From: a virus | Length of the DNA: 52,317 nt | IMG/VR virus record: IMGVR_UViG_3300021957_000053 | Coordinates: 1 to 52,317 of that record | Direction: 5' to 3' (one strand) | Shown here: positions 636-40,850 of the stretch, piece by piece | Position numbering within the stretch: position 1 is the stretch's first letter | Layout of the letters: each line of letters begins with the position of its first letter | Position numbers and translations under genes: made by a program | The notes under the pieces: generated by a model | The model's input: only the letters and a program-made list of their open reading frames with translations | What the model was told of the DNA's origin: nothing | The model's database searches: none

Positions 636-3600
636 ATGGGAATGACTAAAGAACAATTAGCTAAAGTAGAAAAATTAACTGCTGGTAATCCTGCAGCTAA
701 AGCTCGTATTGAGGCTGCTGCTAAAAAATTAATGCAATCCAAAGGTCTTATGAATAAAGGCGGTGTTGTAGCTTTTAATCAAGGTGGATCTTCACAGAGC
801 AATTATGCAGCTTATAGAAGTACTGAGGGTTATGAACCTCAAGAGGGAACGCAAGCTTATATAGATAAATATGGTCAAACCGAATCTACTAATGAAACAA
901 CAATTAATCCTAATAATTTACAAAATACTCAAGAAGATGTAACACAGCCTAATCAAACACTAGAAGATATGATGAAACGTAATATAGACACTGGTAAAAC
1001 AGATGTTAAAACAGGGGTTACTTTTGACAGTCCTTTTAAGGGCGATACTTACACAGAACAAAATATACCAGAAGGTTTTGATTATACTTCTTTTTGGGAA
1101 AATTTATCTGAAGAAGATAAACAAGAAGTTATACCTAACTATCAAGATTTTGGTGAAGGCGCTATAATTTCATCTATATTTGAAAGTATGGAAAATGATA
1201 CAGGCAGTAATTATTATAGTGAAAATACAAAAGAATATGTAGATAGATTAAAAAGTAAAGTTAAATCAACTATGCCCGTAGAGGAAAAATCTTTTACAGA
1301 AAATCTAGATACTTTACAAAGTGATTTATCTAGAGCAAGAGTTGATTTATCAAGCATGCCAAAAGGCGTAGCACCTCCTGCAGAAGATGAAATTGACACT
1401 AGGACACAAAAAGAAATAAACGACTATGCTGCGTATCAAGCTACTGCTGAAAATGTAAATAATTTAGAAGGTCAAGTATCTGTTGCGCAGCAAGCCGTAA
1501 GAACTTCTTCTGTTCCCGGAGCAAGTGAAGCTACAGCAATAGCAGCCTCAGATCCTATGTCTCTTGTCGCTACACAAGATGTAGAAAAAATTGGAGATCA
1601 AAGTGCTGAAGCTTTAGATAGTCAATTAATACCTATTGGTACAGGTATGGCCGGTAAATTAGATCCACAAAAGTTATTAGAAGATACTACAGCTGGTATG
1701 TCATTTGTAGGGGGTAACGGACCACGTTGGGATAGTAGTAAAAATAAATTCGTACTTAGTACTATGACTCCCGGAGAAGCGCTACAAGAATTTACAGCAG
1801 CTGAATTAATTCAAAAATATAAACCTGAGTTAAATGTAAATGATTATGTTACCGGACCTCAAGTTGATGTTAGTACCGTAGGAACTACAGCACAAGCAGA
1901 TGATCCTACTAAAACAGATGCAGCTACTTATGATGCGGATAAAGTTTCTACAAAAGTCTCAACAGAAGTAGATAAACTTAACCCTGCACAACTAGAGGAT
2001 TTAACTAAAAAAGTTGTAGCTCAAGGTATGCTACCAGAAGATTTAGCTCAACTAGATCTTGACCCTGCTCAAATAGAAAAAGTAAGAACAGTTGCAGATA
2101 TTGCAGATTTAGTTCTTACTGATGAACAGAAAGTAAAGGCAGCTACTTTAGCTAATAGTGGTATACCTTTACCTAAAGCTATTGAACAGGTTACAGATAA
2201 AACATTTGAAGCAAACCCTCAAAAATTTGAGAGTGCTACACCAGAAGCTCAAGCAGCAGTAGACTATGATCTGGGTGAAATTGAAGGTGTACAAAGTGTT
2301 GTAGATAAAGAGACTGAAATTGTAAATCCACAAGGATTAGATTTATCTCCTGAACAGTCAGAAGAAATTACTTCTGATTACCAATCTAGTTTAGAAGCAG
2401 TAACAGGTAAGGTAGAAAAAGGGGAAACTATAAATCCCGAAGATACTTATAATTTAACTCCAACTTCTATTGCAAGTATTAATAAAGAAAAAGTAGAAGA
2501 CCCTGCTACCATGACTGACTATCCTACTGCAGGTGGTGCTGATACTGACTATAGAAGTACCATTGAAGGTGCAAAAGGATCTGTTGGTGTAGATGAATTA
2601 ATAAATGCAGAAGCAATAGGTATTAATAAAGAAGTTGTTAATCAATCTGTATTTGCTATTGCTAAAACAATGGAAGAAGTTAATGAAGCAGCAGTAATGA
2701 AAGCTGCAACATTAAATCAGACTACCCTTGCAGAAGGTGTTGTAGGTGCAGTTAATCCTATGTCTACAGTTCAAGGCCAAATGTCTGAACTTATGAACCA
2801 GTTTAATGATGGTACACCAGCATGGGCTGCAGGGGCTATGAGGGCTGCTACAGCAGCTATGTCTGCTCGTGGGTTAGGTGGTAGCTCAATGGCAATGGCA
2901 GCTATCACACAGGCTGCTATTGAGTCTGCGTTACCAATTGCACAATCTGATGCTAAGTTCTATCAAGATATGGATATGACTAACCTTAGTAACCGTCAGG
3001 CTACTTCATTAGCTAATGCTGCAGCTTCTCAAGGTATAGAGCTTAGAAACCTTGATAATATGCAAGCAGCTGCATTAAAAAACAGTACTCAAGCTTTTGA
3101 TTTACAGTCGCAAAACTTAACCAACCTTCAAGAAACTGTACTGGCTAACTTAAATGTTAAAGCTTCAGTTCAAAATAAGTCATTAGATATTAATGCTCAA
3201 GCATCTATAGCTAATGCTGCTCGTTATGCAGAAATGAATAATATCAATTTAAATAACAAGCAACAGTCTTTACTTCAAGAGTCCTCAGAAAATTTACAGA
3301 TTGAACTCTCAGAATTAAGTAATGAACAGCAAGCAGCAATTTCTTCACTGCAAGTTAAAGCATCTTTAATGGGTCAAAACTTAAGCAATGAACAGCAAAT
3401 GGCTGTACTGGAGTCTACTCAAAACTTTGAAGCTGCTGAGTTTGATGCCTCAGCTAAACAACAAGCCTTTATGCAGGATGCTCAAGCTCAAGCTGCACTT
3501 GAAGGTAAGTCTATGGATATACGACAGCAGACAGCACTGTTTAATGCTAGTCGTATAGCTGAAGTAAATGATGTTAATCTTACTAATCAACAACAAGTTG

Positions 3601-4898
3601 CTTTACAAAAATCAACTGAAAGTCTTTCTATTGAAATAGAAAATCTCAATAGTCGTGAGTCTACTGCTCTTGCCAATGCACAACTTCGTGCTGCTTTGCA
3701 GGGTAAAGTTCTTGACAATAAACAACAGTCTGCTATACTAAATGCGGAAAGATATGCAGAAGCTAATAACATTAGCGTCACTAACGCACAACAAGCTGTT
3801 GTTCAAGAGTATGCTGCTCGTACTACAATGGAAGGTAAAGTACTAGATAATCAGCAACAAGCTGCAATATTTAATATCGCTAATCAAATACAAGAACGTG
3901 GGGTAGAGTTAAGTAATGAACAACAAGTAGAGTTATTTAATACTACTAATAACTTAGAGGTAGAAATGGCTAACCTCTCAAATAAACAACAGACTGCTCT
4001 CGCTAATGCACAGATTGATGCCGCTCTTAGAGGGCAGGAGTTATCTAATTTCCAGCAATCAAATGTTTTAAATGCTGCAAGAGTCAGTGAAATTGCTAAT
4101 ATTAACTTTACTACCGAACAACAAACAGCAATACAAAATTCTAAGTTAGCTCAATCATTTGATATAGAGAATCTTAATGCTGAACAGGCGTTATTACTTG
4201 CTGATGCTGCAGCTATGACTGCTATAGACATGTCTAATTTAGACAAAAGACAGCAAGCTCAGGTTCAAAATGCTCAAAACTTTTTACAATTAGATATGGC
4301 TAACTTAAACAATGAGCAACAGACTGCTATATTTAAGTCGCAACAAAACATCGGAGCTTTACTTTCTGATCAAGCTGCAGAAAATGCAAAGCTACAGTTT
4401 AATGCAGCATCTGAAAATCAAGTCAATCAATTCTTTGCAGATCTTTCTGCTAATGTTAATAAGTTTAACACAGAGCAAAAGAATGTAATTGCACAGTTTA
4501 ATGCAGGGGAAGAAAATGCTGGTGCTAAATTTGATGCTCAATTAGAATCTGCAAGACAGCAGTTTAATGCTAGTAATGAATTAGTAATTGAACAAGCTAA
4601 CACTAAGTGGAGACAGGATATAGTTACCTTAGATACTGCCGCACAGAATGATGCAAACGCTGCTGCTGCTACTATAGCGGCTAGTATTACTAGCTCAGTG
4701 TTAGATCAAATTTGGCAACGTGAACGTGATATGATGGACTATGCAGTAACTAGTTCAGAGAATGAAGCTGATAGAACTAATGCTATCATACTCCAAAAGT
4801 TAGCAGGTCAGTATAGCTTAGATGCTGCAGAATTAAGAGCAGAGTTAGAGGCTGACTCTCAAGTAGGTGCTGCTCTTTGGGATTTAGTTTTTGGTTAA
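636..4898 (+). CDS. Giant virion protein (1420 aa) with 21 tandem 22-residue repeats
   Basis: Residues 1-51 carry a short basic helix ending in the motif SKGLMNKGGVVAFNQGG. Residues about 60-780 are acidic and Thr/Gln/Asp-rich, without a recognised fold. Residues 784-1245 (bases 2985-4370) are 21 consecutive 22-residue units with no insertions or deletions, each starting with a version of L-S/N-N-x-Q-Q, and grouped in part into 66-residue super-units. The C-terminus is again helical. Two 11-residue turns per unit point to a hendecad helix or coiled coil. The size and the position beside a lytic transglycosylase and other large internal proteins suggest a structural or ejection protein. A start at 642 (second Met) is also possible. 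Confidence 0.8.
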   Translation: MGMTKEQLAKVEKLTAGNPAAKARIEAAAKKLMQSKGLMNKGGVVAFNQGGSSQSNYAAYRSTEGYEPQEGTQAYIDKYGQTESTNETTINPNNLQNTQEDVTQPNQTLEDMMKRNIDTGKTDVKTGVTFDSPFKGDTYTEQNIPEGFDYTSFWENLSEEDKQEVIPNYQDFGEGAIISSIFESMENDTGSNYYSENTKEYVDRLKSKVKSTMPVEEKSFTENLDTLQSDLSRARVDLSSMPKGVAPPAEDEIDTRTQKEINDYAAYQATAENVNNLEGQVSVAQQAVRTSSVPGASEATAIAASDPMSLVATQDVEKIGDQSAEALDSQLIPIGTGMAGKLDPQKLLEDTTAGMSFVGGNGPRWDSSKNKFVLSTMTPGEALQEFTAAELIQKYKPELNVNDYVTGPQVDVSTVGTTAQADDPTKTDAATYDADKVSTKVSTEVDKLNPAQLEDLTKKVVAQGMLPEDLAQLDLDPAQIEKVRTVADIADLVLTDEQKVKAATLANSGIPLPKAIEQVTDKTFEANPQKFESATPEAQAAVDYDLGEIEGVQSVVDKETEIVNPQGLDLSPEQSEEITSDYQSSLEAVTGKVEKGETINPEDTYNLTPTSIASINKEKVEDPATMTDYPTAGGADTDYRSTIEGAKGSVGVDELINAEAIGINKEVVNQSVFAIAKTMEEVNEAAVMKAATLNQTTLAEGVVGAVNPMSTVQGQMSELMNQFNDGTPAWAAGAMRAATAAMSARGLGGSSMAMAAITQAAIESALPIAQSDAKFYQDMDMTNLSNRQATSLANAAASQGIELRNLDNMQAAALKNSTQAFDLQSQNLTNLQETVLANLNVKASVQNKSLDINAQASIANAARYAEMNNINLNNKQQSLLQESSENLQIELSELSNEQQAAISSLQVKASLMGQNLSNEQQMAVLESTQNFEAAEFDASAKQQAFMQDAQAQAALEGKSMDIRQQTALFNASRIAEVNDVNLTNQQQVALQKSTESLSIEIENLNSRESTALANAQLRAALQGKVLDNKQQSAILNAERYAEANNISVTNAQQAVVQEYAARTTMEGKVLDNQQQAAIFNIANQIQERGVELSNEQQVELFNTTNNLEVEMANLSNKQQTALANAQIDAALRGQELSNFQQSNVLNAARVSEIANINFTTEQQTAIQNSKLAQSFDIENLNAEQALLLADAAAMTAIDMSNLDKRQQAQVQNAQNFLQLDMANLNNEQQTAIFKSQQNIGALLSDQAAENAKLQFNAASENQVNQFFADLSANVNKFNTEQKNVIAQFNAGEENAGAKFDAQLESARQQFNASNELVIEQANTKWRQDIVTLDTAAQNDANAAAATIAASITSSVLDQIWQRERDMMDYAVTSSENEADRTNAIILQKLAGQYSLDAAELRAELEADSQVGAALWDLVFG
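2985..4370 (+). repeat. 21 x 66-bp coding repeat (22-residue units)
   Basis: The codons here specify 21 units of exactly 22 residues in unbroken phase. Position 1 is hydrophobic (usually Leu), positions 2-4 are usually Ser/Asn/Asp, Asn and a variable residue, and positions 5-6 are usually Gln-Gln. Three unit types recur in order several times: one with Ala-Asn-Ala-Gln then Ala-Ala-Leu, one with Asn-Ala-x-Arg then Asn-Asn-Ile-Asn, and one ending Ile-Glu-Asn. DNA identity between units is low, so selection on the protein, not recent duplication, keeps the period. Confidence 0.9.
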
Positions 4899-7202: not shown

Positions 7203-10200
7203 ATGACTTCTTATTTAGAAAACATAGAAGAAAAAAACTTTTTAGATTTAAAAGATAACTACGATTTTCAAGTAGATCTTGTTAAGTTTTTTTCTGGTGG
7301 CAGATATAAAATGTCTCGTGAAGAAATGGAGAAACAGGGTTTTGAAAACTTAACTCGTAAGTTTGCAGAACATATGAGGTTTCAAAGCTGGAATGATGCC
7401 ACTGCTTTAAAAGATTTAAACTATGTTAATAATAAAAAATTACCTCAGGGTGGTAAAGAATCTTTTGGTAATCTCTTACAGGCATGGGATAACTCTGAGG
7501 CTGCAGGTACTGGTGCTTGGAGTGGGTTAGGGGATTTCAGTGAGGCATTGATTAAATCTCCATCCACATACTTAGGTATGGGTAGCTTTGGTTTAGCTAA
7601 GGCTGGTGCTAAAGCTGCAACTAAAACTACACAAATATTAGTTAGAAAAAAACTAAAGGACTATTTTAGTAAACGGGTAGTAGCTAAAGGTATGGCTACT
7701 GGTGCAGTAACTGAAGGTGCTATCGGTGGAGTAACCTCTTACGGTGCAGGAGAGGTTCGTGAAGAGCTATTAAATCAAGAGTATACTACCTCTGATCTAA
7801 TTAAAGACACTGCTATTAATGCTGCTTTTGGTGCTGTTGGTGGCGGTGTTGGCGCTAAGATAACAGAAAAGAAAGCTATCAATGTAGAAGAGTTACTAAC
7901 AAAGCAAAAAGAATTAAATAAAAAGAACTCTTTAGAGGCAAGTAAAAAAGCAAATCAAAAAATTACCAGTACTAAACAAGAGTATAAGAGATTTGCAATA
8001 AACAAAACATTAGATATGGAAGCCACACTTGCAGCTAGAGCAGGTGATAAAGTAACTGGGGTAATTAAAGATCCGCTTGATCCTGAGAAGGTAAGTATGG
8101 GCCAGTCTATTTTAAACAGCATGCAAAATCCAGAAGTAAATGATGTATTTAGTTCTGGTTTAGATCTTACCACAATGAGATCTATTACTGCAGCAACTAT
8201 TGAGATAGCAGAGAAACTAGACCTAAAAGATAACGAAAGGATCACAACTGCTGTCGCTAACTCTATTAATAGTAAGACCTTAGATGTTACTAAATTAATA
8301 CCAGAAATTAGAGATAAGTATAATCTAACTAACGAACAATTTTCTTTAATATATTTAGCTGATCTATCTGCAGCAGGTAAAAAACTAGCCGAAGCATCTA
8401 AAATATCTAAAGCTGTCAGTAAGGTAGAGGCAGAAGCACCGTCAGAAATTATGGGAGATCTTACTAAACTTTCTAATAGGGGCTTATCAACCATTAATGA
8501 TGTACAAGCAGCAGAAATATCTGCTAATGTAATTAAAAACTCTGCTGGTCGTAGTAAAAGTATGGTAGCTTATAACTTTCTACAAGACTTAGATCAAATG
8601 CGTATTGCATTTATGACATCACAACCTGCTACAACAGCCCGTAACGTTACATCTACTGGATTACTAGCTGCAGTAGAGATTAGTGATGAGTTTTACCGTG
8701 GTTTGTACAGAACTATAACAGGTAAAGAAGGTGGGGGAATAGGTAACACAGTCCGTAACATGTCCTCTACTCTTCGTGGATTAAGTATGGACAGTGCAAC
8801 TGCACAGGTTGTTAGGGGCATGCTCCAAGAAGAAATGCCAGAAGCATATGCAAGAACATTTCATGATACACTAAGATCAGAAGTCTCAGGTCAAAGTCAA
8901 ACAGCTTTTGCTAAAGCAGGTAGGTTCGTTAATATTTTTAACACTGCCACTGATACTGTATTTAAAGAAGCAGCATTCTTTAGTAGTTTAGATAGACAGC
9001 TAAGAACTGCAGGTAATGAAACTGTTGGTACTAATGCAAGAGATTTTATCCTTAAAACAGGTAAACTTGATAAGCTTGATAAGTCTATGGTGGACAAAGC
9101 CCTTGATGATGCTAATAGATTTACAATGCAAAGAACTTATATGGATGATAAATCTTTATTCGGTCAAGGCGCAAGGATGGCATCTTCAGTGAATAAAAAG
9201 ATTCCCTTTCTTATGTCAGGAGCTTTAGGTGTACCTTTCCCAAGGTACGTAGCTAATCATATAGAAATGATTGCTGATTACACTCCGGGTTTAGGGGAGC
9301 TTGCTAAAAGATTTGAAAGTTCTTCAAGTTCAGACGCAGCATTTTCTTTTACAGGAGATCCATATAAATCTGTTGAAGATAGAAGAGTAAGGCAGTTTAC
9401 TGGCGCAGGTTTAATAGCTCTTGGCTACTATTTAGCTAGTACTAAAGAAGGTGAAATAAATTATAAGTCCATAGAAAATTCTATTAAAGGTGAGGCTGAT
9501 ATTGCTTCTTCGTTAGGGTTTATTATTGCACCAGTATTTATTGGAGATTTATTCTACAGATACAACCAAGGACTTGCTATGCCAGAAAGCATAACAAATG
9601 AGGCTCTGTCTGTTGCAGGTGGTTTAAATGATATGGGGTTTGATCTTAGTGGTATTAAAGAAGTTATAAATTCTTTTTCTGAAGGTGGTATAACTGAAGG
9701 GGCTTCAAAAATGGGAGGTAATATTTTATCAACATTTACCTATCCACTAACTCCACTAAGAGATTTACAAGGTCAGTTTAGTTATGAGTCTGCTGGTGCC
9801 CCTTACACCAGAAGCCTAGCTTCAAGTTTAGAAGAAGATAAAACAGAAGAAACATCTGGTATGTTTGCAGCGCAAGCTACAAGATTTTTACCTGATTATG
9901 ACTTTATACAATACACACAATCTTTTACTCGTAATGAAGGTAATGATATTGATTACTATAGTCCTTTTAATCCTATGCCTGTAGGCAAGATGAACCCTAT
10001 TGCAAAGACTTTCACTGGTGTAGCTGGTAGTCCAACACTTACTGGCATACAAAGGGAAATGAACAGACTTAATTTAGAAGAGTATAAACTCTATGGAAAC
10101 TCTAAAGTAAAAAATAATAATTTAGATTATGTAGTTAGGTACAGACTATCACAGGTTATGCATAAAAACTTTGAAGCTTGGAGAAAAGAAAAACTACCAC

Positions 10201-10583
10201 TTGGTTCAGAGGTAGAGAATAAAACTTATGATGAAATAGAATCAGTAGAATTAAAGAAAGAAATTTTTAAGGGGTTTATAGATCGTCAGGTGGAGCATCA
10301 AATAAAGAAAACAGAAGAATGGTTTGGCAGTCTTATAGGTCAAAGAAATAATATGAAAGCTAGGGGTTATATTCGTAATAACTATTTTCTGAAGATAGCA
10401 GAGCAAGGCGACAGGATATTTAACAAAGCCGCATCTGATTTAACAGGTAAGAAATTTAAAACCTCTAAAGAATATTTAGAGGACTCTGAAAGTATAGAAG
10501 AAGAACTAGAGAGACGCCAGAGTTTAATAGAAGCTGTAGGTAAACTAGAGACTAAAATCCCTAAGTTTCAACAAACCCCCTAG
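7203..10583 (+). CDS. Large internal virion (ejection-type) protein, 1126 aa
   Basis: Residues about 95-220 are rich in Gly/Ala and amphipathic, with stretches such as AFGAVGGGVGAKI that could enter membranes. A motif around residues 470-490 (FMTSQPATTARNV) is one I associate with large internal proteins of podoviruses. The remainder is helical. Length, position after the transglycosylase gene and lack of enzyme motifs fit an ejection protein delivered with the DNA. It is the last gene of the rightward late operon: its stop overlaps the end of the convergent leftward gene by 4 bp. AAGG lies seven bases before the start. Confidence 0.8.
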   Translation: MTSYLENIEEKNFLDLKDNYDFQVDLVKFFSGGRYKMSREEMEKQGFENLTRKFAEHMRFQSWNDATALKDLNYVNNKKLPQGGKESFGNLLQAWDNSEAAGTGAWSGLGDFSEALIKSPSTYLGMGSFGLAKAGAKAATKTTQILVRKKLKDYFSKRVVAKGMATGAVTEGAIGGVTSYGAGEVREELLNQEYTTSDLIKDTAINAAFGAVGGGVGAKITEKKAINVEELLTKQKELNKKNSLEASKKANQKITSTKQEYKRFAINKTLDMEATLAARAGDKVTGVIKDPLDPEKVSMGQSILNSMQNPEVNDVFSSGLDLTTMRSITAATIEIAEKLDLKDNERITTAVANSINSKTLDVTKLIPEIRDKYNLTNEQFSLIYLADLSAAGKKLAEASKISKAVSKVEAEAPSEIMGDLTKLSNRGLSTINDVQAAEISANVIKNSAGRSKSMVAYNFLQDLDQMRIAFMTSQPATTARNVTSTGLLAAVEISDEFYRGLYRTITGKEGGGIGNTVRNMSSTLRGLSMDSATAQVVRGMLQEEMPEAYARTFHDTLRSEVSGQSQTAFAKAGRFVNIFNTATDTVFKEAAFFSSLDRQLRTAGNETVGTNARDFILKTGKLDKLDKSMVDKALDDANRFTMQRTYMDDKSLFGQGARMASSVNKKIPFLMSGALGVPFPRYVANHIEMIADYTPGLGELAKRFESSSSSDAAFSFTGDPYKSVEDRRVRQFTGAGLIALGYYLASTKEGEINYKSIENSIKGEADIASSLGFIIAPVFIGDLFYRYNQGLAMPESITNEALSVAGGLNDMGFDLSGIKEVINSFSEGGITEGASKMGGNILSTFTYPLTPLRDLQGQFSYESAGAPYTRSLASSLEEDKTEETSGMFAAQATRFLPDYDFIQYTQSFTRNEGNDIDYYSPFNPMPVGKMNPIAKTFTGVAGSPTLTGIQREMNRLNLEEYKLYGNSKVKNNNLDYVVRYRLSQVMHKNFEAWRKEKLPLGSEVENKTYDEIESVELKKEIFKGFIDRQVEHQIKKTEEWFGSLIGQRNNMKARGYIRNNYFLKIAEQGDRIFNKAASDLTGKKFKTSKEYLEDSESIEEELERRQSLIEAVGKLETKIPKFQQTP

Positions 10584-26428: not shown

Positions 26429-26662
26429 TTAATCCTCATCTCCACACATGTTATCCCATTCTTCAGGGCTGATACCTGTCTTAATAAACTCACGTTGCTC
26501 GGCATCCAAGTCAGGCATTACATTCTGAATCAGTTCACCTGATTGTAGCCAGTATTCTATCTTACCCTGAGTCGTAGGTAAAACCATAGAGTTTACTCTA
26601 CCTGAAAGCATAGACTTCTTGTGAACAAATACTTTGTTCTCTGCAATGTGTTCTATCCGCAT
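26429..26662 (-). CDS. Small early protein, 77 aa
   Basis: RIEHIAENKVFVHKKSMLSGRVNSM then a strand-rich centre and an acidic helical end (DLDAEQREFIKTGISPEEWDNM). AAAGGAG lies eight bases upstream, right after copy 5 of the element. Three bases separate its stop from the zinc-finger gene. Unknown function. Confidence 0.6.
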   Translation of the reverse strand: MRIEHIAENKVFVHKKSMLSGRVNSMVLPTTQGKIEYWLQSGELIQNVMPDLDAEQREFIKTGISPEEWDNMCGDED

Positions 26663-26808
26663 GTTATTCTCCTTTTCATTCTCGGATTTTCCGTGATTAG
26701 TTTTGCATTGTTAGGGAAACGTTTCAGTATCTTCGATACTTGGCGCATGTCACGACAAGTAAGATAAGAAAACATAAACCCTTCCTCATCATAGAAACAT
26801 ACACGCAT
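26653..26808 (-). CDS. Small early protein, 51 aa, reading through the repeated element
   Basis: Starts MRVCFYDEEGFMFSYLTCRDM and continues as a basic helix. Its reading frame crosses copy 5 of the intergenic element, translating it as LITENPRM, and stops ten bases into the next gene. No ribosome site better than GGGGGTGA is seen. The inverted repeat AGTATC-TTC-GATACT (26726-26740) in its middle is the first member of the hairpin-dense tract. Confidence 0.5.
   Translation of the reverse strand: MRVCFYDEEGFMFSYLTCRDMRQVSKILKRFPNNAKLITENPRMKRRITCG
26678..26699 (-). repeat. CGGAA-N-TTCCG intergenic element, copy 5
   Basis: One base differs (GGAAAATCC). Here the TAA is not used as a stop; the element is read in frame by the 51-aa gene. 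It is followed by AAAGGAG of the 77-aa gene. Confidence 0.8.
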
Positions 26809-26810
26809 GA

Positions 26811-26966
26811 TCACCCCCGATCAAAAGCTAAAACAGAAAGTAATATTACTACAGGTAGTAAGGATAATAATATTATAGGATTAATAGTAGTATAAGCTAC
26901 TATTAATAATATACTTGAAGTAGATATAAGTATTAATAACCAAGCAAGAAATAATATTACTGGCAT
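26811..26966 (-). CDS. Small membrane protein, 51 aa
   Basis: ATG 26966 has AAAGGAG eight bases upstream. The 51 residues are nearly all hydrophobic with two membrane segments (ILFLAWLLILISTSSILLIV; IILLSLLPVVILLSVL) and a charged end (FDRG). A holin-like or membrane-signalling protein is possible. Its DNA contains the 10-bp-arm inverted repeat TTAATAGTAG/CTACTATTAA and an AGTAATATTACT palindrome, so it lies in the hairpin-dense tract. Confidence 0.6.
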   Translation of the reverse strand: MPVILFLAWLLILISTSSILLIVAYTTINPIILLSLLPVVILLSVLAFDRG

Positions 26967-27002
26967 CGCATGATCTCCTTTGCCGCATGTCCACAAAAAA
27001 GT

Positions 27003-27023
27003 ATTCTCGGAATTTCCGAGAAC
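27003..27023 (-). repeat. CGGAA-N-TTCCG element, copy 6 (symmetrical form)
   Basis: TTCTCGGAA-T-TTCCGAGAA: arms of 9 bp around a single centre base. Copies 1-5 have only a shorter core symmetry. It lies in the 112-bp gap between the membrane protein and the 61-aa gene. Confidence 0.85.
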
Positions 27024-27055
27024 ACCATTATACTTCTCTGAAGTATAAACAAAAA

Positions 27056-27080
27056 AAGCTCCCCGAAGGGAGCTTCTTTT
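27056..27080 (-). terminator. Hairpin terminator with UUCG loop
   Basis: AAGCTCCC and GGGAGCTT pair (8 bp) around a 4-base loop. On the - strand the loop reads TTCG and the stem is followed by TTTTTTT, a textbook rho-independent terminator. On the + strand CTTCTTTT follows, so it may work both ways. It lies just after the 61-aa gene. Confidence 0.8.
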
Positions 27081-27264
27081 ATATTTCACCGAGAAAGATT
27101 AAACAATCTATAAAGCCTTCAGCTTTATGTTTGTTTATCCAAGAGTCACTCTCCTTTTTAAGGAGGACTGGTAAATCATATCTGTCGGTTATTAACCGAC
27201 CTTGATAGCAAAAACAGTATTCATTATCTGAATACTCTAAGATTTGAACTCCACTATATTCCAT
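27079..27264 (-). CDS. Small acidic protein in hairpin tract, 61 aa
   Basis: EYSGVQILEYSDNEYCFCYQG, then LITDRYDLPVLLKKESD, a small mixed alpha/beta sequence of unknown family. Its DNA is largely made of inverted repeats (AGTATTCA/TGAATACT, GTCGGTT/AACCGAC, CTCCTT/AAGGAG, ATAAAGC/GCTTTAT). The SD (GGAGA) lies in the loop and right arm of a 7-bp stem at 27268-27284, the same arrangement as for the 204-aa gene. Confidence 0.55.
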   Translation of the reverse strand: MEYSGVQILEYSDNEYCFCYQGRLITDRYDLPVLLKKESDSWINKHKAEGFIDCLIFLGEI

Positions 27265-27267
27265 ATT

Positions 27268-27284
27268 TTAAATCTCCGATTTAA
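27268..27284 (-). promoter_or_regulatory. Hairpin presenting the SD of the 61-aa gene
   Basis: TTAAATC-TCC-GATTTAA on the + strand; in the mRNA the loop is GGA and the SD GGAGA spans loop and stem, a few bases before the start codon. Folding would partly hide the ribosome site. Confidence 0.6.
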
Positions 27285-27288
27285 GTTG

Positions 27289-27310
27289 ATCACGGAATTT
27301 CCGAGATTGA
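27289..27310 (+). repeat. CGGAA-N-TTCCG element, copy 7 (opposite orientation)
   Basis: Reads ATCACGGAATTTCCGAGATT then GA on the + strand, the reverse of copies 1-5. It lies between the 204-aa gene and the SD hairpin of the 61-aa gene. Confidence 0.8.
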
Positions 27311-27311
27311 A

Positions 27312-27331
27312 TAGCCCCCCGAAGGGGGCTA
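27312..27331. other. GC-rich hairpin after the 204-aa gene
   Basis: TAGCCCCC and GGGGGCTA pair around CGAA (TTCG on the - strand). It resembles the terminator at 27056 but has no T run, so it may be an RNA 3'-end protector or processing block and not a terminator. Confidence 0.6.
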
Positions 27332-27337
27332 AATGAT

Positions 27338-27952
27338 TTACTTGAAGAGCTTTGCAAGCTCTTTTGCGAACTCAGATCTCTTAAAGCCTCCGGCTTGAAG
27401 AGCATCAAATACTTGCTCTGCAAGTTCCTTTTCGTTCTTGGCTATCACTGTCTCAAAGACAGTGTTCTTTAGCACTTCCTCAGCCTTATTAGGCTGCTCA
27501 GAAGCCTTCGGCTTGCCCTTCGAGGTGTTTCCTGCTGAAGAAGCTTTAGGCTTCTTACGAAGCTCAGGATGAGCTTCCAGAACAATCTTCCGTATCGAAG
27601 ATACGCCAAGTGCTGAAAGCTTACCAGCTTTGTTTAACTGTTGGACTTTAGTCCAATGGGTGGCAATCCACTTGGCATCATATTTATCAGCGGAGCTGAT
27701 GTTTTCATTCGACAAATCGGTTCCACCGATAAAAGAGCCGTAGGCTTTCTTGTCACCACCGAACAATGCTTCAATTTGAAGCAAGACATTACCGAGTTCT
27801 CGGTAAAGGTTAAGCTGATCCTCTTGGATCAGATAAAGCTTGTCATAACAAGCTACGGCATGGCTGATTCCATCAGTGATAGTGTAGGTCTTACGACCTA
27901 ATTTGAATTGGCTGTTCAATGTTACCGTAGGTAAAGTAGCTGAATTTGTCAT
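27338..27952 (-). CDS. First early gene: 204-aa protein encoded almost entirely by hairpins
   Basis: The N-terminal 120 residues look folded (FKLGRKTYTITDGISHAVACYDK; YRELGNVLLQIEALFGGDKKAYG; WIATHWTKVQQLN). Residues about 125-160 are a Lys/Pro/Ser linker (RKKPKASSAGNTSKGKPKAS), and the end is helical and charged (KELAEQVFDALQAGGFKRSEFAKEL). No family recognised. The shape (domain, basic linker, helix) fits a DNA-binding or early takeover protein. The coding DNA holds at least 16 perfect inverted repeats, yet the frame is intact, so both protein and structure seem maintained. It is the first gene behind the 28.0-kb promoter. Confidence 0.75.
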   Translation of the reverse strand: MTNSATLPTVTLNSQFKLGRKTYTITDGISHAVACYDKLYLIQEDQLNLYRELGNVLLQIEALFGGDKKAYGSFIGGTDLSNENISSADKYDAKWIATHWTKVQQLNKAGKLSALGVSSIRKIVLEAHPELRKKPKASSAGNTSKGKPKASEQPNKAEEVLKNTVFETVIAKNEKELAEQVFDALQAGGFKRSEFAKELAKLFK

Positions 27953-27954
27953 CG

Positions 27955-27969
27955 TTAATCTCCGATTAA
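27955..27969 (-). promoter_or_regulatory. Hairpin presenting the SD of the 204-aa gene
   Basis: TTAATC-TCC-GATTAA on the + strand, giving loop GGA in the mRNA with the SD GGAG across loop and stem. It has the same loop and inner stem as the hairpin before the 61-aa gene, pointing to shared control of translation. Confidence 0.6.
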
Positions 27970-28011
27970 GTTAAGGTTGCTGCCTCATCGATTTGCCGAT
28001 GAAGCCCTTAC

Positions 28012-28041
28012 TTTGTAGCACTATCCAAAATCGATTGTCAA
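28012..28041 (-). promoter_or_regulatory. Leftward early promoter
   Basis: On the - strand: TTGACA, exactly 18 bp, TACAAA, with TGC before the -10 box. It is placed to start the early transcript about 50 bp upstream of the 204-aa gene. The leader would contain the hairpin TCATCG/CGATGA (27985-28002) and the SD hairpin. Confidence 0.65.
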
Positions 28042-28070
28042 GCCCTATTTAAACCCTAAAGGGTTTACCT

Positions 28071-28093
28071 ATTCTCGGAAATTCCGAGATTGA
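28071..28093 (-). repeat. CGGAA-N-TTCCG element, copy 8 (symmetrical form)
   Basis: TCTCGGAA-A-TTCCGAGA: 8-bp arms around one base, lying just upstream of the leftward early promoter, where a bound protein could influence it. Confidence 0.8.
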
Positions 28094-28699
28094 ACTTCCC
28101 CTTTAGGGGAAAAACTTCCCATCTTTTCCCAAGCATTATGCGAAAGAAAAAGCTATGCAGGTGATCCTGATCCCAAGCATGATCCCAACCGATTGAACCA
28201 TATTATGGTTTGACCATGATCTTGGTCTAAAGACCAAAGCCCTGTAATCCCCAAGAGATTACCTTGTAATCTGATAAAGGGAATCCCTTATTGTTTATAA
28301 AAACAATACATTTCAATGACTTGTCATTGATTCTTGTTGAATCCTACGGATTTACAGGCATGATCAAGCCCATCTAGGCTACGGGGGGCATGGGCCAGTG
28401 GGGGGTACGTAGATACTATATACACTCAATGACAGAGAGGGGTATTTTTAGTTGGTAACTACAATTATACCAGCCCATATATAGTATTCCCTAGTAAAAA
28501 CATAGGGTTAATCTAATTATTGGTACGAAAGTAAGTAGTCTATAATAGGATACTGGGGAGATATGTGAGATATGTTACAAAGTCTGTAACAATTTGTGAC
28601 CATATGGACTTATACTTTGTGGTAACTGGACTTACATAGAAATTTAATAGTGTTAAATAAATATTAAATTAATTTAAATATTATTTCTTACTTTTAGTC

Positions 28700-28727
28700 T
28701 TGACAAATATTCAAAGTGCGGTATAAT
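28700..28727 (+). promoter_or_regulatory. Rightward consensus sigma70-type promoter
   Basis: TTGACA, 16 bp, TATAAT: both boxes are perfect consensus. The expected start point falls within the inverted repeat that follows, so this promoter is likely to be repressible. It would drive the lysis and head genes. Confidence 0.8.
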
Positions 28728-36923: not shown

Positions 36924-37114
36924 GCCAATTAAAGCTAGTCGTAAATAACAAACCTCAGTGGGATGCAATGCTGGAAGAAATTGACTTTCGCATTGCATTT
37001 ATACATAAACAAATGGAACAATACGATGACCCTGCAGAAATCTACAGGTTTCAAGGGGAGATTCGTGCATTAAGATCTTTAACTAAACTTAGGGATAAAG
37101 TTAATAATGGCTAG
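36920..37114 (+). CDS. Small conserved protein after portal, 64 aa (GTG start)
   Basis: GTG 36920 overlaps the portal stop (GTGA). Two helices (KPQWDAMLEEIDFRIAFIHKQM; PAEIYRFQGEIRALRSL) form a short coiled-coil type protein that commonly follows portal genes in this kind of phage. It overlaps the next gene by 8 bp. Role unknown; a head or adaptor accessory is plausible. Confidence 0.7.
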   Translation: MSQLKLVVNNKPQWDAMLEEIDFRIAFIHKQMEQYDDPAEIYRFQGEIRALRSLTKLRDKVNNG

Positions 37115-40100
37115 TGTTGACGAACAAATGAAAAAAGGTATGGGCTATGGTGAACTAATCGTAGATAATATACTTGGCTTAGATAATGAGTATGAATCAT
37201 TTGGTGAAAAACTTGGCAAAGTTATTGATGAAGATGAGTTAAAATTTTTAAAGGATGCTGCAGTAGGAGTATACGAAGGGGCTAAGGAATTTATAACTAG
37301 CCCTGTAGAAACTACAAAAGAAGTTGTAACTAATATTAAAGACAGTGTACAAAGACTTGGTAGTGAAGATTTAGATACAAGACTACAAAATATGTATAGT
37401 GTATCATACGACCAAGCTACAGATCAACAGGTAAACTCTGCAAGAGAAGCTGTTATCGGTGATGCCATGACTGCATTAGAGTTAATTCCTGCAGCTAAAG
37501 CAGCAACAGTTACTGCAAAAGCAGCAAGTTCTGCTGTACCTAGTGGAGTTAAAGCTGATATAGTGGGTCAAACCAAAGCAGTCTTTGATGGTGACATGGA
37601 GTTTCTAAAAGGTACACCAACAGAACGTTCTGGTACTGTAGGTGTTGGTGCAGAAGTAGTTGGTCAAGATAATGTAAGTCTTGATGATATTAATGATTAT
37701 ATGGATTTAGAAGTACAACCTACTAAATCTAAAAAAGAAACAAATCCTTTAGTTAGAAGTGTAAATGCTAGTAATGTAGAGGTTCAAGCAGACTTAGCAG
37801 ATTTTCGTAGTTCTGTTTTAGGTTCTTTAGACAATCTTGCCATTGGTAAAGATGGTATGTCTGGCTTTCAAATCAAAAAGTTTTTAGAAAAGAGAGCACC
37901 GAAAATAAATAAAACAGAGTTGTATTGGTCAGGTCTTTTAGAAAACTTAGACGATAACAAAAAATATTCTAAACAACAATTAAAAACTCTTGCAGATAGA
38001 AATGTACCTAAAGTAGATATAGAAGTTCTTCGGAGTAATAAAACAAAATATCGTGGAGAACAAAGGGTAGTTTTTCAAAGCAACAATCCTAATGGAGATA
38101 TTATAAATCCTTTAGATAGTTATATAGAAATAATTCTTAGAAATAAAAACACTAAAGGCACTAAATATGATGCTGCTGATATGCATTTTTATTCGCCTGA
38201 AGGTGAAAATATTTTAGCTCATGTAAGAGGTAGTTTTGTAAAAACTGATGAAATTAAAGATTCAAATTTTCCAATAAAAGAAAAGTTTTTTATTGTTGAA
38301 GAACTACAAAGTGATGCTGTACAACAACACACAGTGGCAGATAAAGCAATTGCTAAAAAAATTAAAGAACAAGAAATATCTAAACCAACTTTAGGTGATA
38401 TAGGTCTTCACTATCAAACAGAGTTTGGTGATATAACTTTTTCTTATCACATGAAAGGTATTGATTTTACCGATAAGTTTGTAAACGATATGAATCGTTA
38501 CAATTATGACTTTAGATCTATAGGAGATCAAGACACTGCAGAACAAGCAGTAAACTTAGGTTTAACTAAGATCATAGATGATATAGCAAAGTTAAAAAGT
38601 GATTTTGTAGATGGTAATCGTACTAAAGATTCAATTGTATCTTTATTAAGTCAAGAATATGGCTTAAAAGAAAATTCTATTAAAAGAAGAAGTATAGAAG
38701 AATTAGATGAAGTTGATAATATTTTTGCAAATGTTTTAAGTGATTATGTTTTTGGTAAATCTGCTGCAAGAAAATTTAATAAAGAATATAATAATAAACT
38801 TAAAGAAGATTTAATAAATACTTTTAAAAGTATAAATATTACTGCTGGTATTGAAGAAGATTTAGTTCCAGCTAAACTTTCTGATACAATTAGAATGTCT
38901 TTGCTTGCTGTAATCAAAGAGTCTAAAGATAATGGTACAAATAAAATATATATTCCTACCCCTAAAGTTATAGCTAGAGCACATGATTTAAGTTTAGATG
39001 CCGCTAAGAATACTTATAGTGATGGTGTTAGAAAAGTTTTAAGGTCACTCAACAGTGAAACAAACGGTAAAATAAAATTTAAAAATAAAAATCCTGATAA
39101 TCTTATTTATTATGATGATATGAATGAAACAGGAATAGAAATAGATATTACAGATTTTGATTTACCAGATGATCCACAGTTTAGATTTGCCGAAGGAGGC
39201 GTAGTAAAAGATATGGATAACCAAATGAAAATGGCTCTTATGCAAGAGGGTGGATTACAAGACGATGGTATGAGTCAAGATCCTGTATCAGGTAATGAAA
39301 TACCTAATGGTTCTATGGCTAGTGAAGTTCGAGATGATATCCCTGCTCAATTATCTGAGGGTGAGTATGTTGTACCTGCTGATGTCGTTAGATTTTTTGG
39401 TGTAAAGTTTTTTGAAGATCTTCGTTCAGAAGCAAAAATGGGCTTGCAACAAATGGATAAAGATGGTAGGATAGGTGGTGAGCCAGTAGCTGTAACTGCT
39501 ATAATGGGTGCAGCACCTATTTCTGACGCAGAACTAGATCAACTTATTCAACAGGAACTAAGTCAAGAAGCTAAGCCAGCTATGGCTATGGGTGGTCTAA
39601 TGGCTAATCAGCAACCTACAATGCAACAGCAACAACCTATGATGCAACAGCAACAACCTATGATGCAACCTCAACCTAATCCGTATCAACAGCAACAACA
39701 AATGATGTACAATAAACCTACTATTAATATGAACAAAGGTGGTTTTATTTCTACTTCTATGGAGTCTCTTAGGGCTGGTTATGCTCCGGGAGGATCTGTA
39801 ACAGGATTTGATCCAAGTAAATATTCTTATGGTGGTACTGGTTCTGGTATGGGATCAGGTTTAAAGGTTATTCAATACGTTAATGATGCTGGAAATATTA
39901 GATGGTATACATTTATTGATGGTAAAATACAACCTCCCGGAACAAAAATACCTGCGGGTTATAAACCATCTGATCCTAGTTTAAATGCTCCACTGCCTGA
40001 AACTCCAGTAACACCTCCGCCTGATACTGGTGTAACTCCACCAGATTCAGGAGACAGAGATGACAAAGACGATGGTGGTGGTGGAAGTAAAGATCCGCAA

Positions 40101-40850
40101 GATCAAATAGAAGTTGACATGTCAAAAAAACTAAAAGAAGTTGATTGGGATGGAGATCTATTAGAACAAGCAAAAGGTTTTGTACAAGATAATCAAGGTC
40201 AAGACATATCTAAACTTGGCGGTGCTGCTGCATTACTAGGTGGACCCGGTGCTATTATAGGTGGTGTCATGGGTGTTGGCGGTAAAATAATGGAGCTTGA
40301 AGGTATTTCTAACGCTAGGGCTATGTCACTTATAGCAGAAGCCAGAGGAGATACAGAAGCTGCTAATAAAATTAATGAGTTTGTAGATTCTCATGTTAAA
40401 GCTAGAGGTGGACTAATAGATTTTGCAGATGGTTTTGTAGCTAAAGGAACAATGAGAGCTAATGACTTAGCTAAAGATTTTGGATTTGATAGCCTAGAGG
40501 ATGCAAAAGAAAATAAAGACGAATTTAACAAAACTTTTAAATCTAGAAAAACTGGATTTGTTGGTGTTATGGGGGATATGACAGCCCAAGAACGCAAAGC
40601 TATGGTTGATAAAGCAAATAAAGACGCTAAAGCTATACTTGATGCTAAAGCTGCTAAAGATAAAAAGTCTAGTGGTAGTAGTCGTGATGATGACTATAGT
40701 GCAGCAGATATGATGAGAGATCGATTAGATAGGATGTCTAAAGCTGAAGGACAATCTGGAGGTTTTCAAGGTAGTGTAACTAGTGGATCTGTTTACGCAG
40801 GAGGTAATAGGGCTAAAGGTGGATTAATGCTCAAGAAAAAAAATAAATAG
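37107..40850 (+). CDS. Large polyvalent-type virion protein, 1247 aa
   Basis: The N-terminal 150 residues are helical and Ala/Val-rich. Residues about 225-440 contain ADMHFYSPEGENILAHVRGS followed by KFFIVEELQSDAV, recalling the E-x-Q-S-D motif of large polyvalent proteins carried in phage particles. Residues about 740-790 (DIPAQLSEGEYVVPADVVRF, FGVKFFEDLRSEAK) are a conserved block in marine podoviruses. The rest is Gln/Met-, Gly- and Pro-rich with six Gly-Gly motifs, ending AKGGLMLKKKNK. It sits between portal and scaffold, so it is probably carried in the head and perhaps injected. Confidence 0.75.
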   Translation: MASVDEQMKKGMGYGELIVDNILGLDNEYESFGEKLGKVIDEDELKFLKDAAVGVYEGAKEFITSPVETTKEVVTNIKDSVQRLGSEDLDTRLQNMYSVSYDQATDQQVNSAREAVIGDAMTALELIPAAKAATVTAKAASSAVPSGVKADIVGQTKAVFDGDMEFLKGTPTERSGTVGVGAEVVGQDNVSLDDINDYMDLEVQPTKSKKETNPLVRSVNASNVEVQADLADFRSSVLGSLDNLAIGKDGMSGFQIKKFLEKRAPKINKTELYWSGLLENLDDNKKYSKQQLKTLADRNVPKVDIEVLRSNKTKYRGEQRVVFQSNNPNGDIINPLDSYIEIILRNKNTKGTKYDAADMHFYSPEGENILAHVRGSFVKTDEIKDSNFPIKEKFFIVEELQSDAVQQHTVADKAIAKKIKEQEISKPTLGDIGLHYQTEFGDITFSYHMKGIDFTDKFVNDMNRYNYDFRSIGDQDTAEQAVNLGLTKIIDDIAKLKSDFVDGNRTKDSIVSLLSQEYGLKENSIKRRSIEELDEVDNIFANVLSDYVFGKSAARKFNKEYNNKLKEDLINTFKSINITAGIEEDLVPAKLSDTIRMSLLAVIKESKDNGTNKIYIPTPKVIARAHDLSLDAAKNTYSDGVRKVLRSLNSETNGKIKFKNKNPDNLIYYDDMNETGIEIDITDFDLPDDPQFRFAEGGVVKDMDNQMKMALMQEGGLQDDGMSQDPVSGNEIPNGSMASEVRDDIPAQLSEGEYVVPADVVRFFGVKFFEDLRSEAKMGLQQMDKDGRIGGEPVAVTAIMGAAPISDAELDQLIQQELSQEAKPAMAMGGLMANQQPTMQQQQPMMQQQQPMMQPQPNPYQQQQQMMYNKPTINMNKGGFISTSMESLRAGYAPGGSVTGFDPSKYSYGGTGSGMGSGLKVIQYVNDAGNIRWYTFIDGKIQPPGTKIPAGYKPSDPSLNAPLPETPVTPPPDTGVTPPDSGDRDDKDDGGGGSKDPQDQIEVDMSKKLKEVDWDGDLLEQAKGFVQDNQGQDISKLGGAAALLGGPGAIIGGVMGVGGKIMELEGISNARAMSLIAEARGDTEAANKINEFVDSHVKARGGLIDFADGFVAKGTMRANDLAKDFGFDSLEDAKENKDEFNKTFKSRKTGFVGVMGDMTAQERKAMVDKANKDAKAILDAKAAKDKKSSGSSRDDDYSAADMMRDRLDRMSKAEGQSGGFQGSVTSGSVYAGGNRAKGGLMLKKKNK

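What the first reader, a model, noticed from the sequence alone, without database searches (positions are those of the whole stretch)
26720..28400. Hairpin-dense tract spanning genes and non-coding DNA
About 1.7 kb is packed with short perfect inverted repeats with tiny loops, nearly end to end. Inside the 615-bp 204-aa gene I count 16 with arms of at least 6 bp and loops of 1-6; chance (4^-6 x 6 loop sizes x 615) gives about one. Arms differ in sequence, so these are not copies of one element, yet the reading frame is intact. I know no named phage system like this. Readings: a structured early RNA (stability, decoy, translation control), a DNA-level device (ssDNA origin, landing zone for the phage's resolvase-like nuclease, barrier to host enzymes), or a mutational process turning near-palindromes into perfect ones.
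Basis: partly seen in the sequence, partly recalled or inferred. Interest (0 to 1): 0.93.

Follow-up and report, generated by a model that had tools for sequence, protein, structure and literature searches.

The report
Hairpin-studded start of phage early operon
A family of ocean viruses packs its first early gene and the flanking DNA with dozens of tiny, perfectly paired hairpins of unrelated sequence, which evolution keeps at high density while the individual hairpins come and go; this is not chance and matches no phage element found in the searches made here.

Summary
The 204-aa gene holds 17 perfect hairpins against 2.5±1.5 in 2,000 synonymous-codon shuffles (maximum 10).

The window is an HMO-2011-type marine podovirus. 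The tract belongs to the first gene of the leftward early operon. I found that gene family in more than 70 further loci (27–100% identity), and the local hairpin maximum lies on or beside the gene in nearly all. Of 35 members tested, 33 show clear excess over synonymous shuffles (332 hairpins in total, 35.8 expected). In cultured phages, HMO-2011, CRP-1 and CRP-345 have both gene and tract; 13 other records or partial records have neither.

The unit is defined: perfect stem of 6–8 bp, loop of 3–4 nt, pyrimidine–purine closing pair. Loops are biased to one strand: GNA triloops 79 on the sense strand, 23 reversed (p=2e-8). Density rises near the promoter, peaks on the first gene and fades over about 4 kb downstream. 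Density is conserved; individual hairpins turn over, with paired changes, loop flips and one-arm templated changes.

Best reading: a selected array of sense-strand hairpins, more DNA-like than RNA-like in loop choice, renewed by template switching, perhaps shaping a displaced strand at an early R-loop or origin. The function is inferred. RNA-level and purely mutational readings remain open.

The parts
26726..28352 (-). Core hairpin tract: about 50 perfect hairpins (arms >=6 bp, loops mostly 1-4) over leader, genes and spacers of the leftward early operon
   Evidence: 24 strict units per kb, 0.53 expected
27338..27952 (-). 204-aa first early gene, the anchor of the tract; distant member of the family that includes HMO-2011 phage1322_74, CRP-1 gp01 and CRP-345 gp01
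   Evidence: (hhalign E 3e-5)
27953..28670 (-). Untranslated leader upstream of the first gene; hairpin-dense up to about 28352, with paired-change hairpins such as TCAATGACaaGTCATTGA versus ACAATGCTaaAGCATTGT in relatives
27955..27969 (-). Hairpin TTAATCggaGATTAA whose loop exposes the Shine-Dalgarno GGAG of the 204-aa gene; changes in length with compensation in relatives
27268..27284 (-). Hairpin TTAAATCggaGATTTAA around the Shine-Dalgarno sequence of the 61-aa gene
27079..27264 (-). 61-aa early ORF inside the tract (4 hairpins against 1.1 in shuffles)
26429..26662 (-). 77-aa early ORF (phrog_20898) at the left edge of the core
27056..27075 (-). UUCG-loop terminator-like hairpin followed by a T run; an RNA-level hairpin inside the tract
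27312..27331 (-). UUCG-loop hairpin TAGCCCCCttcgGGGGGCTA just after the 204-aa stop codon
22500..26700 (-). Downstream tail of weaker hairpin excess along the early operon
28678..28706 (-). Candidate leftward early promoter TTGTCA-17-TAATAT, upstream of the tract (consensus match only)
28700..28727 (+). Perfect sigma-70 consensus TTGACA-16-TATAAT pointing right, conserved in relatives; the rightward operon has no hairpin tract

Best explanation
SHOWN: the tract is a conserved feature of the first early gene of HMO-2011-type phages. It is built from a defined unit (perfect 6-8 bp stem, 3-4 nt loop, 5'-pyrimidine/purine-3' closing pair), laid over coding and non-coding DNA alike, biased to the sense strand, densest over the leader and first gene, and fading along the direction of transcription. 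Density is kept, while single hairpins turn over. INFERRED: the hairpins act as single-stranded structures of the sense (non-template) strand. The most likely setting is DNA that becomes single-stranded when the early transcript opens the duplex (R-loop, or strand displacement at an early replication start). Folding of the displaced strand would keep it from re-annealing, from being coated or cut, or would offer start sites for second-strand synthesis. Template switching at such hairpins makes and repairs perfect stems, which explains their perfection. Selection keeps the density, because any hairpin will do. The linked first-gene protein is a candidate partner.
For: Codon-preserving excess in 33 of 35 members of the gene family, 332 against 35.8. 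Of 16 named phage records checked, only the three with the gene have the tract. Directional profile: 0.1-0.3 units per 250 bp upstream of -1000, 1.9-2.8 in the leader, 3.5-4.2 over the gene, fading to about 0.2 by +4.5 kb. Sense-strand bias: GNA 79 against TNC 23; leader only 26 against 7, loop purines 236/384, p=8e-6. DNA-like loops: triloops 262, tetraloops 177, one UUCG; rRNA has 6% triloops and 42% tetraloops (PMC8794818). Such short GRA-triloop hairpins extrude from DNA in phage N4 at a superhelical density of -0.035 (PMC4496689). Near absence of imperfect stems: 22-26x for perfect stems, 1.2-1.6x with one internal mismatch. Synonymous sites in arms change less than in spacers, tested with hairpins defined in a third genome: 4/72 against 23/113, p=0.005; 5/60 against 35/126, p=0.002. 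Template-switch footprints.
Against: No direct evidence that the region is an origin or forms R-loops; GC skew changes sign there, but so does transcription direction. In the 54-locus set G.U-bearing stems are enriched more than A.C ones (99/55.8 against 66/60.1), which RNA would predict, although G.T is also the milder DNA mismatch. GNRA tetraloops, stable in RNA as well as DNA, lean to the sense strand (14 against 4). With L009 in the comparison, arms are often not more conserved than spacers. The first-gene protein has no recognisable fold or function.
Confidence: 0.38

Rival explanations
1. RNA-level: the 5' part of the early transcript is studded with hairpins that block Rho loading, R-loop formation or ribonucleases, or tune translation. 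Density matters, identity does not.
For: Sense-strand loop bias and a gradient that follows transcription; a long untranslated leader (the candidate promoter lies about 730 nt upstream of the ATG); G.U stems more frequent than A.C stems in the 54-locus set; Shine-Dalgarno sequences exposed in hairpin loops.
Against: No G.U preference in the A/B/C set (30 against 29, expected 19.2 and 20.1) nor among single breaks of orthologous hairpins (13 against 13). Loops of 5-8 nt, common in structured RNA, are at background. UUCG is nearly absent except in the terminator-like hairpins. Within translated genes Rho should not need blocking.
Confidence: 0.3
2. Mutational: hairpin-primed template switching during replication or transcription of this region turns near-palindromes into perfect ones and homogenises arms; the hairpins have no function.
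For: Binary perfection without an excess of imperfect stems, the signature used to argue for arm conversion in Nematomorpha mtDNA (PMC6649704); loop flip ttt/aaa between 95%-identical relatives L004 and L005; a polarised one-arm change in L278, GAAATGAATATG to GATACTTTAGTG, matching the other arm; mismatch type is irrelevant; quasi-palindrome mutations depend on high transcription in yeast (PMC3820800).
Against: Very few stems of 9 bp or more (5 of 53 with >=8, p=0.003); arm synonymous sites conserved, although coupling of coding arms could mimic this; no 5'/3' arm polarity (335 against 346 changes); strict tie to one gene family at one genome position over deep divergence.
Confidence: 0.22
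3. Evasion of guide-based defence: spacers or guides taken from the first-expressed region would contain a self-folding hairpin and work poorly.
For: Indifferent to coding; hairpin centres mostly 20-50 nt apart, so most 30-36 nt windows meet one.
Against: Strand bias is not predicted; no literature support found; hosts unknown for most loci.
Confidence: 0.05
4. N4-like hairpin promoters for a virion RNA polymerase.
For: Stem and loop size and GRA triloops resemble N4 early promoters; the portal protein is related to those of N4-like phages.
Against: No virion RNA polymerase match by PHROGs or PDB profile in the large proteins tested; N4 uses three such promoters with conserved bases, whereas here there are dozens with variable loops.
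Confidence: 0.03

Closest known systems
Coding palindromes in mitochondrial genes of Nematomorpha (PMC6649704)
   Same: Perfect inverted repeats inside functional genes, no excess of imperfect ones, gains and losses between species, template switching proposed
   Different: There arms reach 284 bp; here stems are 6-8 bp with 3-4 nt loops, dozens per kb, one genome position, strand-biased, in phages
Phage N4 early promoter hairpins (PMC4496689)
   Same: Small DNA hairpins in an early region; stem of up to 7 bp; GRA triloop; variable stem bases tolerated
   Different: Three promoters with required bases read by a virion RNA polymerase; here dozens without shared bases and no such polymerase found
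Template-switch evolution of RNA hairpins (PMC8794818)
   Same: Multi-base compensatory changes, loop inversions, stable loops promote switching
   Different: Described for rRNA and microRNA genes in which the stems are functional RNA; here over protein genes and leaders
Densely structured ssRNA phage genomes (MS2)
   Same: Hairpins over coding sequence
   Different: MS2 shows imperfect stems enriched too (G.U 2.6x, A.C 3.0x, perfect 5.1x); here almost only perfect stems are enriched
Dispersed palindromic repeats (REP/BIME, Rickettsia palindromic elements; from general knowledge)
   Same: Small palindromic elements, some in genes
   Different: Those are copies of one sequence; here the arms are unrelated to one another

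Membership tests
HMO-2011-type phage (host genome of the tract) | Related portal and replication genes, class II ribonucleotide reductase, early/late divergent layout | tested here: met
   portal 77% identical to CRP-9; class II RNR; family A polymerase; integrase
N4 virion-RNAP promoter hairpins | Virion RNA polymerase encoded | tested here: not met
   no PHROGs match for the 1126-, 1247- and 1420-aa proteins, no RNAP match for the 1571-aa protein; profile A3 finds no N4 RNAP in the PDB
N4 virion-RNAP promoter hairpins | Conserved purine centre and conserved stem G in each hairpin | tested here: not met
   loops and stems vary freely
Nematomorpha-type coding palindromes | Perfect repeats in coding DNA with no excess of imperfect ones | tested here: met
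Nematomorpha-type coding palindromes | Long arms scattered through the genome | tested here: not met
   stems 6-8 bp, one position
Intrinsic transcription terminators | G+C-rich stem followed by a T run | tested here: not met
   11 terminator-like sites in 26.0-29.2 kb (1.9 expected), a small part of the hairpins
Known structured RNA family | Rfam covariance model match | tested here: not met
   no match near a gathering score
Repetitive palindromic element (REP/BIME/RPE) | Copies share sequence | tested here: not met
   arms differ; only the TCTCGGAAATTCCGAGA motif recurs
CsrA/RsmA sponge RNA | GGA in most loops | tested here: not met
   GGA is in 12 of 54 triloops of lineage A and in a minority overall
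R-loop or strand-displacement replication origin | Initiation mapped in the tract | not testable with these tools
   sequence only; GC skew is confounded with gene direction

The most novel reading that the evidence does not exclude
A new kind of genetic element in which the information is secondary structure alone: a sequence-free array of minimal sense-strand hairpins overlaid on coding and non-coding DNA, inherited as density rather than as individual sites, renewed by template switching, and linked to a dedicated first-gene protein that works with the opened strand at the onset of infection.
Probability: 0.35. Interest if true: 0.94.

Novelty: categorically new. Interest (0 to 1): 0.87.

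Why it matters
Genes are read for protein and regulatory sites for sequence. Here a whole operon start carries a third layer, short hairpins whose number rather than identity is kept, in a dominant and widespread marine phage group (PMC9038755). If functional, it is a new way to encode a nucleic-acid device on top of a gene, with an unknown partner protein. If mutational, it is a natural hotspot for template switching and a direct test case for how perfect hairpins arise. Both can be tested, because cultured phages (HMO-2011, CRP-1) carry it and close relatives without gene and tract serve as controls.

Tried and rejected
Rfam search of the region: nothing near a gathering score. Virion RNA polymerase: none found. 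Structure of the 204-aa protein from its own clade: poor model (pLDDT 52); the family model is good (pLDDT 79) but has no PDB match at E<=0.001, and the best viral match is a 205-aa unnamed entry, the length of the HMO-2011 protein. Pfam and PHROGs on the first genes: only weak scattered matches. Bacterial genomes by the polymerase: no relative. Regular spacing: gaps match random placement; an 11.5-nt period appears in lineage A and L284 but not in lineage C or L256. Arm polarity of changes: none. An early reading that absence of G.U tolerance excludes RNA was softened: it holds in the first sets but the larger set shows some G.U excess, and MS2 shows no G.U preference either. My first view that HMO-2011 has only a mild excess was wrong because the record is cut next to the tract; the end of the record holds it.
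Full report
OBSERVATION. The tract is real. Counting perfect inverted repeats with arms of at least 6 and loops of 0-8, the window holds 0-5 per 500 bp almost everywhere and 8-15 per 500 bp from 26.5 to 29.0 kb. The 204-aa gene holds 17 (loops 1-8), against 2.5±1.5 in 2,000 shuffles that keep protein and codon usage (maximum 10) and 1.1±1.0 when codon order is shuffled. The hairpins are listed; arms differ, loops are short.

WHERE. The window is an IMG/VR contig of the HMO-2011 type: portal protein 77% identical to Roseobacter phage CRP-9, family A polymerase, primase-helicase, class II ribonucleotide reductase, integrase. The tract lies at the start of the leftward early operon. A perfect sigma-70 promoter points right at 28700-28727, and a weaker leftward candidate overlaps it at 28706-28678; both stretches are conserved in relatives. 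The rightward operon has no hairpin excess.

RELATIVES. Ten loci encode close relatives of the 204-aa protein (68-98% identity). The nine that hold most of the tract reach 35-53% hairpin coverage of 1 kb, 10-17 times the composition expectation. A survey of 286 loci (3.4 Mb) found further strong tracts at the same place in distant HMO-2011-type phages, and nothing comparable elsewhere. Their first genes led to a family of about 190-240 aa proteins. Searching with four of them gave 71 loci of 27-100% identity. In nearly all of these the best hairpin window of the locus overlaps or borders that gene, with 4-26 strict units against about 0.5 expected. The 204-aa protein is a distant member (profile-profile E 3e-5).

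ASSOCIATION IN CULTURED PHAGES. By profile search, HMO-2011 (phage1322_74), CRP-1 (gp01) and CRP-345 (gp01) carry the gene (E about 1e-53 or better), and these three have the tract: 14, 12 and 6 units in the best kilobase against 0.53-0.54. Thirteen other phage records or partial records, including CRP-2, -3, -9, -13, -207, -212, -235, -738, SIO1 and T7, have neither gene nor tract. Several of these were examined only in part.

CODON-PRESERVING TEST ON THE FAMILY. Of 35 members, 33 exceed synonymous shuffles (at most 5 of 200 shuffles reach the observed count); the sum is 332 hairpins against 35.8. HMO-2011 phage1322_74 has 8 against 0.5, and CRP-1 gp01 9 against 1.3. Averaged over members, the density per 250 bp is 0.1-0.3 upstream of -1000, 1.9-2.8 in the leader, 3.5-4.2 over the gene, then 1.8 falling to about 0.2 at +4.5 kb. 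Background before the promoter region and a long downstream tail show that the feature follows the transcribed unit.

THE UNIT. In lineage A, excess is found only for effective loops of 3 and 4 nt (loops of 1-2 count as 3-4 once the innermost pair is open); loops of 0 and of 5 or more are near background, and the same holds in lineages B and C. Stems in excess are 5-8 bp with the mode at 6-7, little or none at 4. Stems of 9 or more are rarer than chance extension predicts, 5 of 53 (p=0.003). The closing pair is 5'-pyrimidine/purine-3' in 155 of 190 (p=3e-19), against about half in control regions. This is the signature of folding nucleic acid, not of dyad sites read in duplex DNA.

STRAND. Loops are purine-rich on the sense strand (613/1093, p=6e-5). 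GNA triloops outnumber their reverse complement 79 to 23 (p=2e-8). In the untranslated leader alone the counts are 26 to 7, and loop purines 236/384 (p=8e-6), so coding bias is not the cause. The hairpins therefore matter, or form, on the sense strand: RNA, or non-template DNA.

RNA OR DNA. Loop choice looks more like DNA. Triloops exceed tetraloops (262 to 177) and UUCG occurs once in 177 tetraloops, whereas rRNA has 6% triloops and 42% tetraloops and is rich in UNCG, which is stable in RNA but not DNA (PMC8794818). In the window itself the terminator-like hairpin at 27056-27075 and the hairpin after the 204-aa stop codon do use UUCG. Small GRA-triloop hairpins are known to extrude from DNA in phage N4 at a superhelical density of -0.035 (PMC4496689). 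G.U tolerance gives a mixed answer: none in lineages A-C (stems with one internal G.U 30 observed, 19.2 expected; A.C 29 and 20.1; perfect 299 and 11.3), none among single breaks of orthologous hairpins (13 and 13), but some in the 54-locus set (G.U 99/55.8, A.C 66/60.1). Yardsticks: rRNA shows G.U above A.C; MS2 does not.

EVOLUTION. Density is kept while hairpins change. Between the window and L009, 5 hairpins are identical, 8 replaced by perfectly paired variants and 35 disrupted, although both tracts are about equally dense. Paired changes are plain, for example TAGGTCgtaaGACCTA and TAGGACgtaaGTCCTA inside the gene, and TCAATGACaaGTCATTGA and ACAATGCTaaAGCATTGT in the leader. Imperfect stems are almost absent. 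Some changes look templated: triloop ttt against aaa between 95%-identical relatives, and in L278 a block change in one arm matching the other, where L275 and L286 keep the older form. No arm is preferred. With hairpins defined in a third genome, to avoid ascertainment, synonymous sites in arms diverge about half as much as spacers in most comparisons (4/72 against 23/113, p=0.005; 5/60 against 35/126, p=0.002), but not consistently when L009 defines them. This points to selection on hairpins, with the caveat that coupling of two coding arms by template switching could also lower divergence, and that the comparisons share genomes.

INTERPRETATION. I judge most likely a selected, sense-strand hairpin array acting on opened DNA at the start of the early operon, kept perfect partly by template switching. 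What is shown is the array, its unit, its strand, its position, its link to the gene family and its mode of evolution. What is inferred is DNA rather than RNA as the acting molecule, and an R-loop or strand-displacement role. The first-gene protein, all-helical with a fairly confident model (mean pLDDT 79) but no structural match in the PDB, is the natural candidate partner.

KNOWN SYSTEMS. The closest phenomenon is the perfect coding palindromes of Nematomorpha mitochondria (PMC6649704), which share the all-or-none perfection but have long arms. N4 promoters share unit size and loop type but not number, conserved bases or polymerase. The paper describing the HMO-2011 group does not mention hairpins, inverted repeats or palindromes (PMC9038755). 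Only openly licensed papers could be searched.

Noticed in passing
window 27005-27021 and 28073-28089; related copies near 26683-26700 and 27293-27310: The palindrome TCTCGGAAATTCCGAGA or a close variant recurs upstream of early genes in the tract; it may be an operator or a start-associated element.
   Followed up: partly
window 28678-28727: Overlapping divergent promoter-like sites, the rightward one a perfect TTGACA-16-TATAAT, conserved in the relatives aligned.
   Followed up: partly
window about 27740-27810 compared with L008 and L004: The window matches the L008 allele here while its flanks match L004: a short recombination mosaic that swaps one hairpin pair for another.
   Followed up: partly
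L004 5584 and L005 3446: Triloop of a conserved hairpin inverted (ttt to aaa) between 95%-identical phages: a microinversion.
   Followed up: yes
lineage A tracts and L284: Weak 11.5-nt periodicity of hairpin centre distances, absent in lineage C and L256.
   Followed up: partly
window 7203-10583, 636-4898, 37107-40850: Large proteins (1126, 1420 and 1247 aa) without a PHROGs match in a dominant marine phage group.
   Followed up: partly
L287 (MS2 genome): In MS2, stems with one G.U and stems with one A.C are about equally enriched, so G.U preference is a poor test where both strands fold.
   Followed up: no
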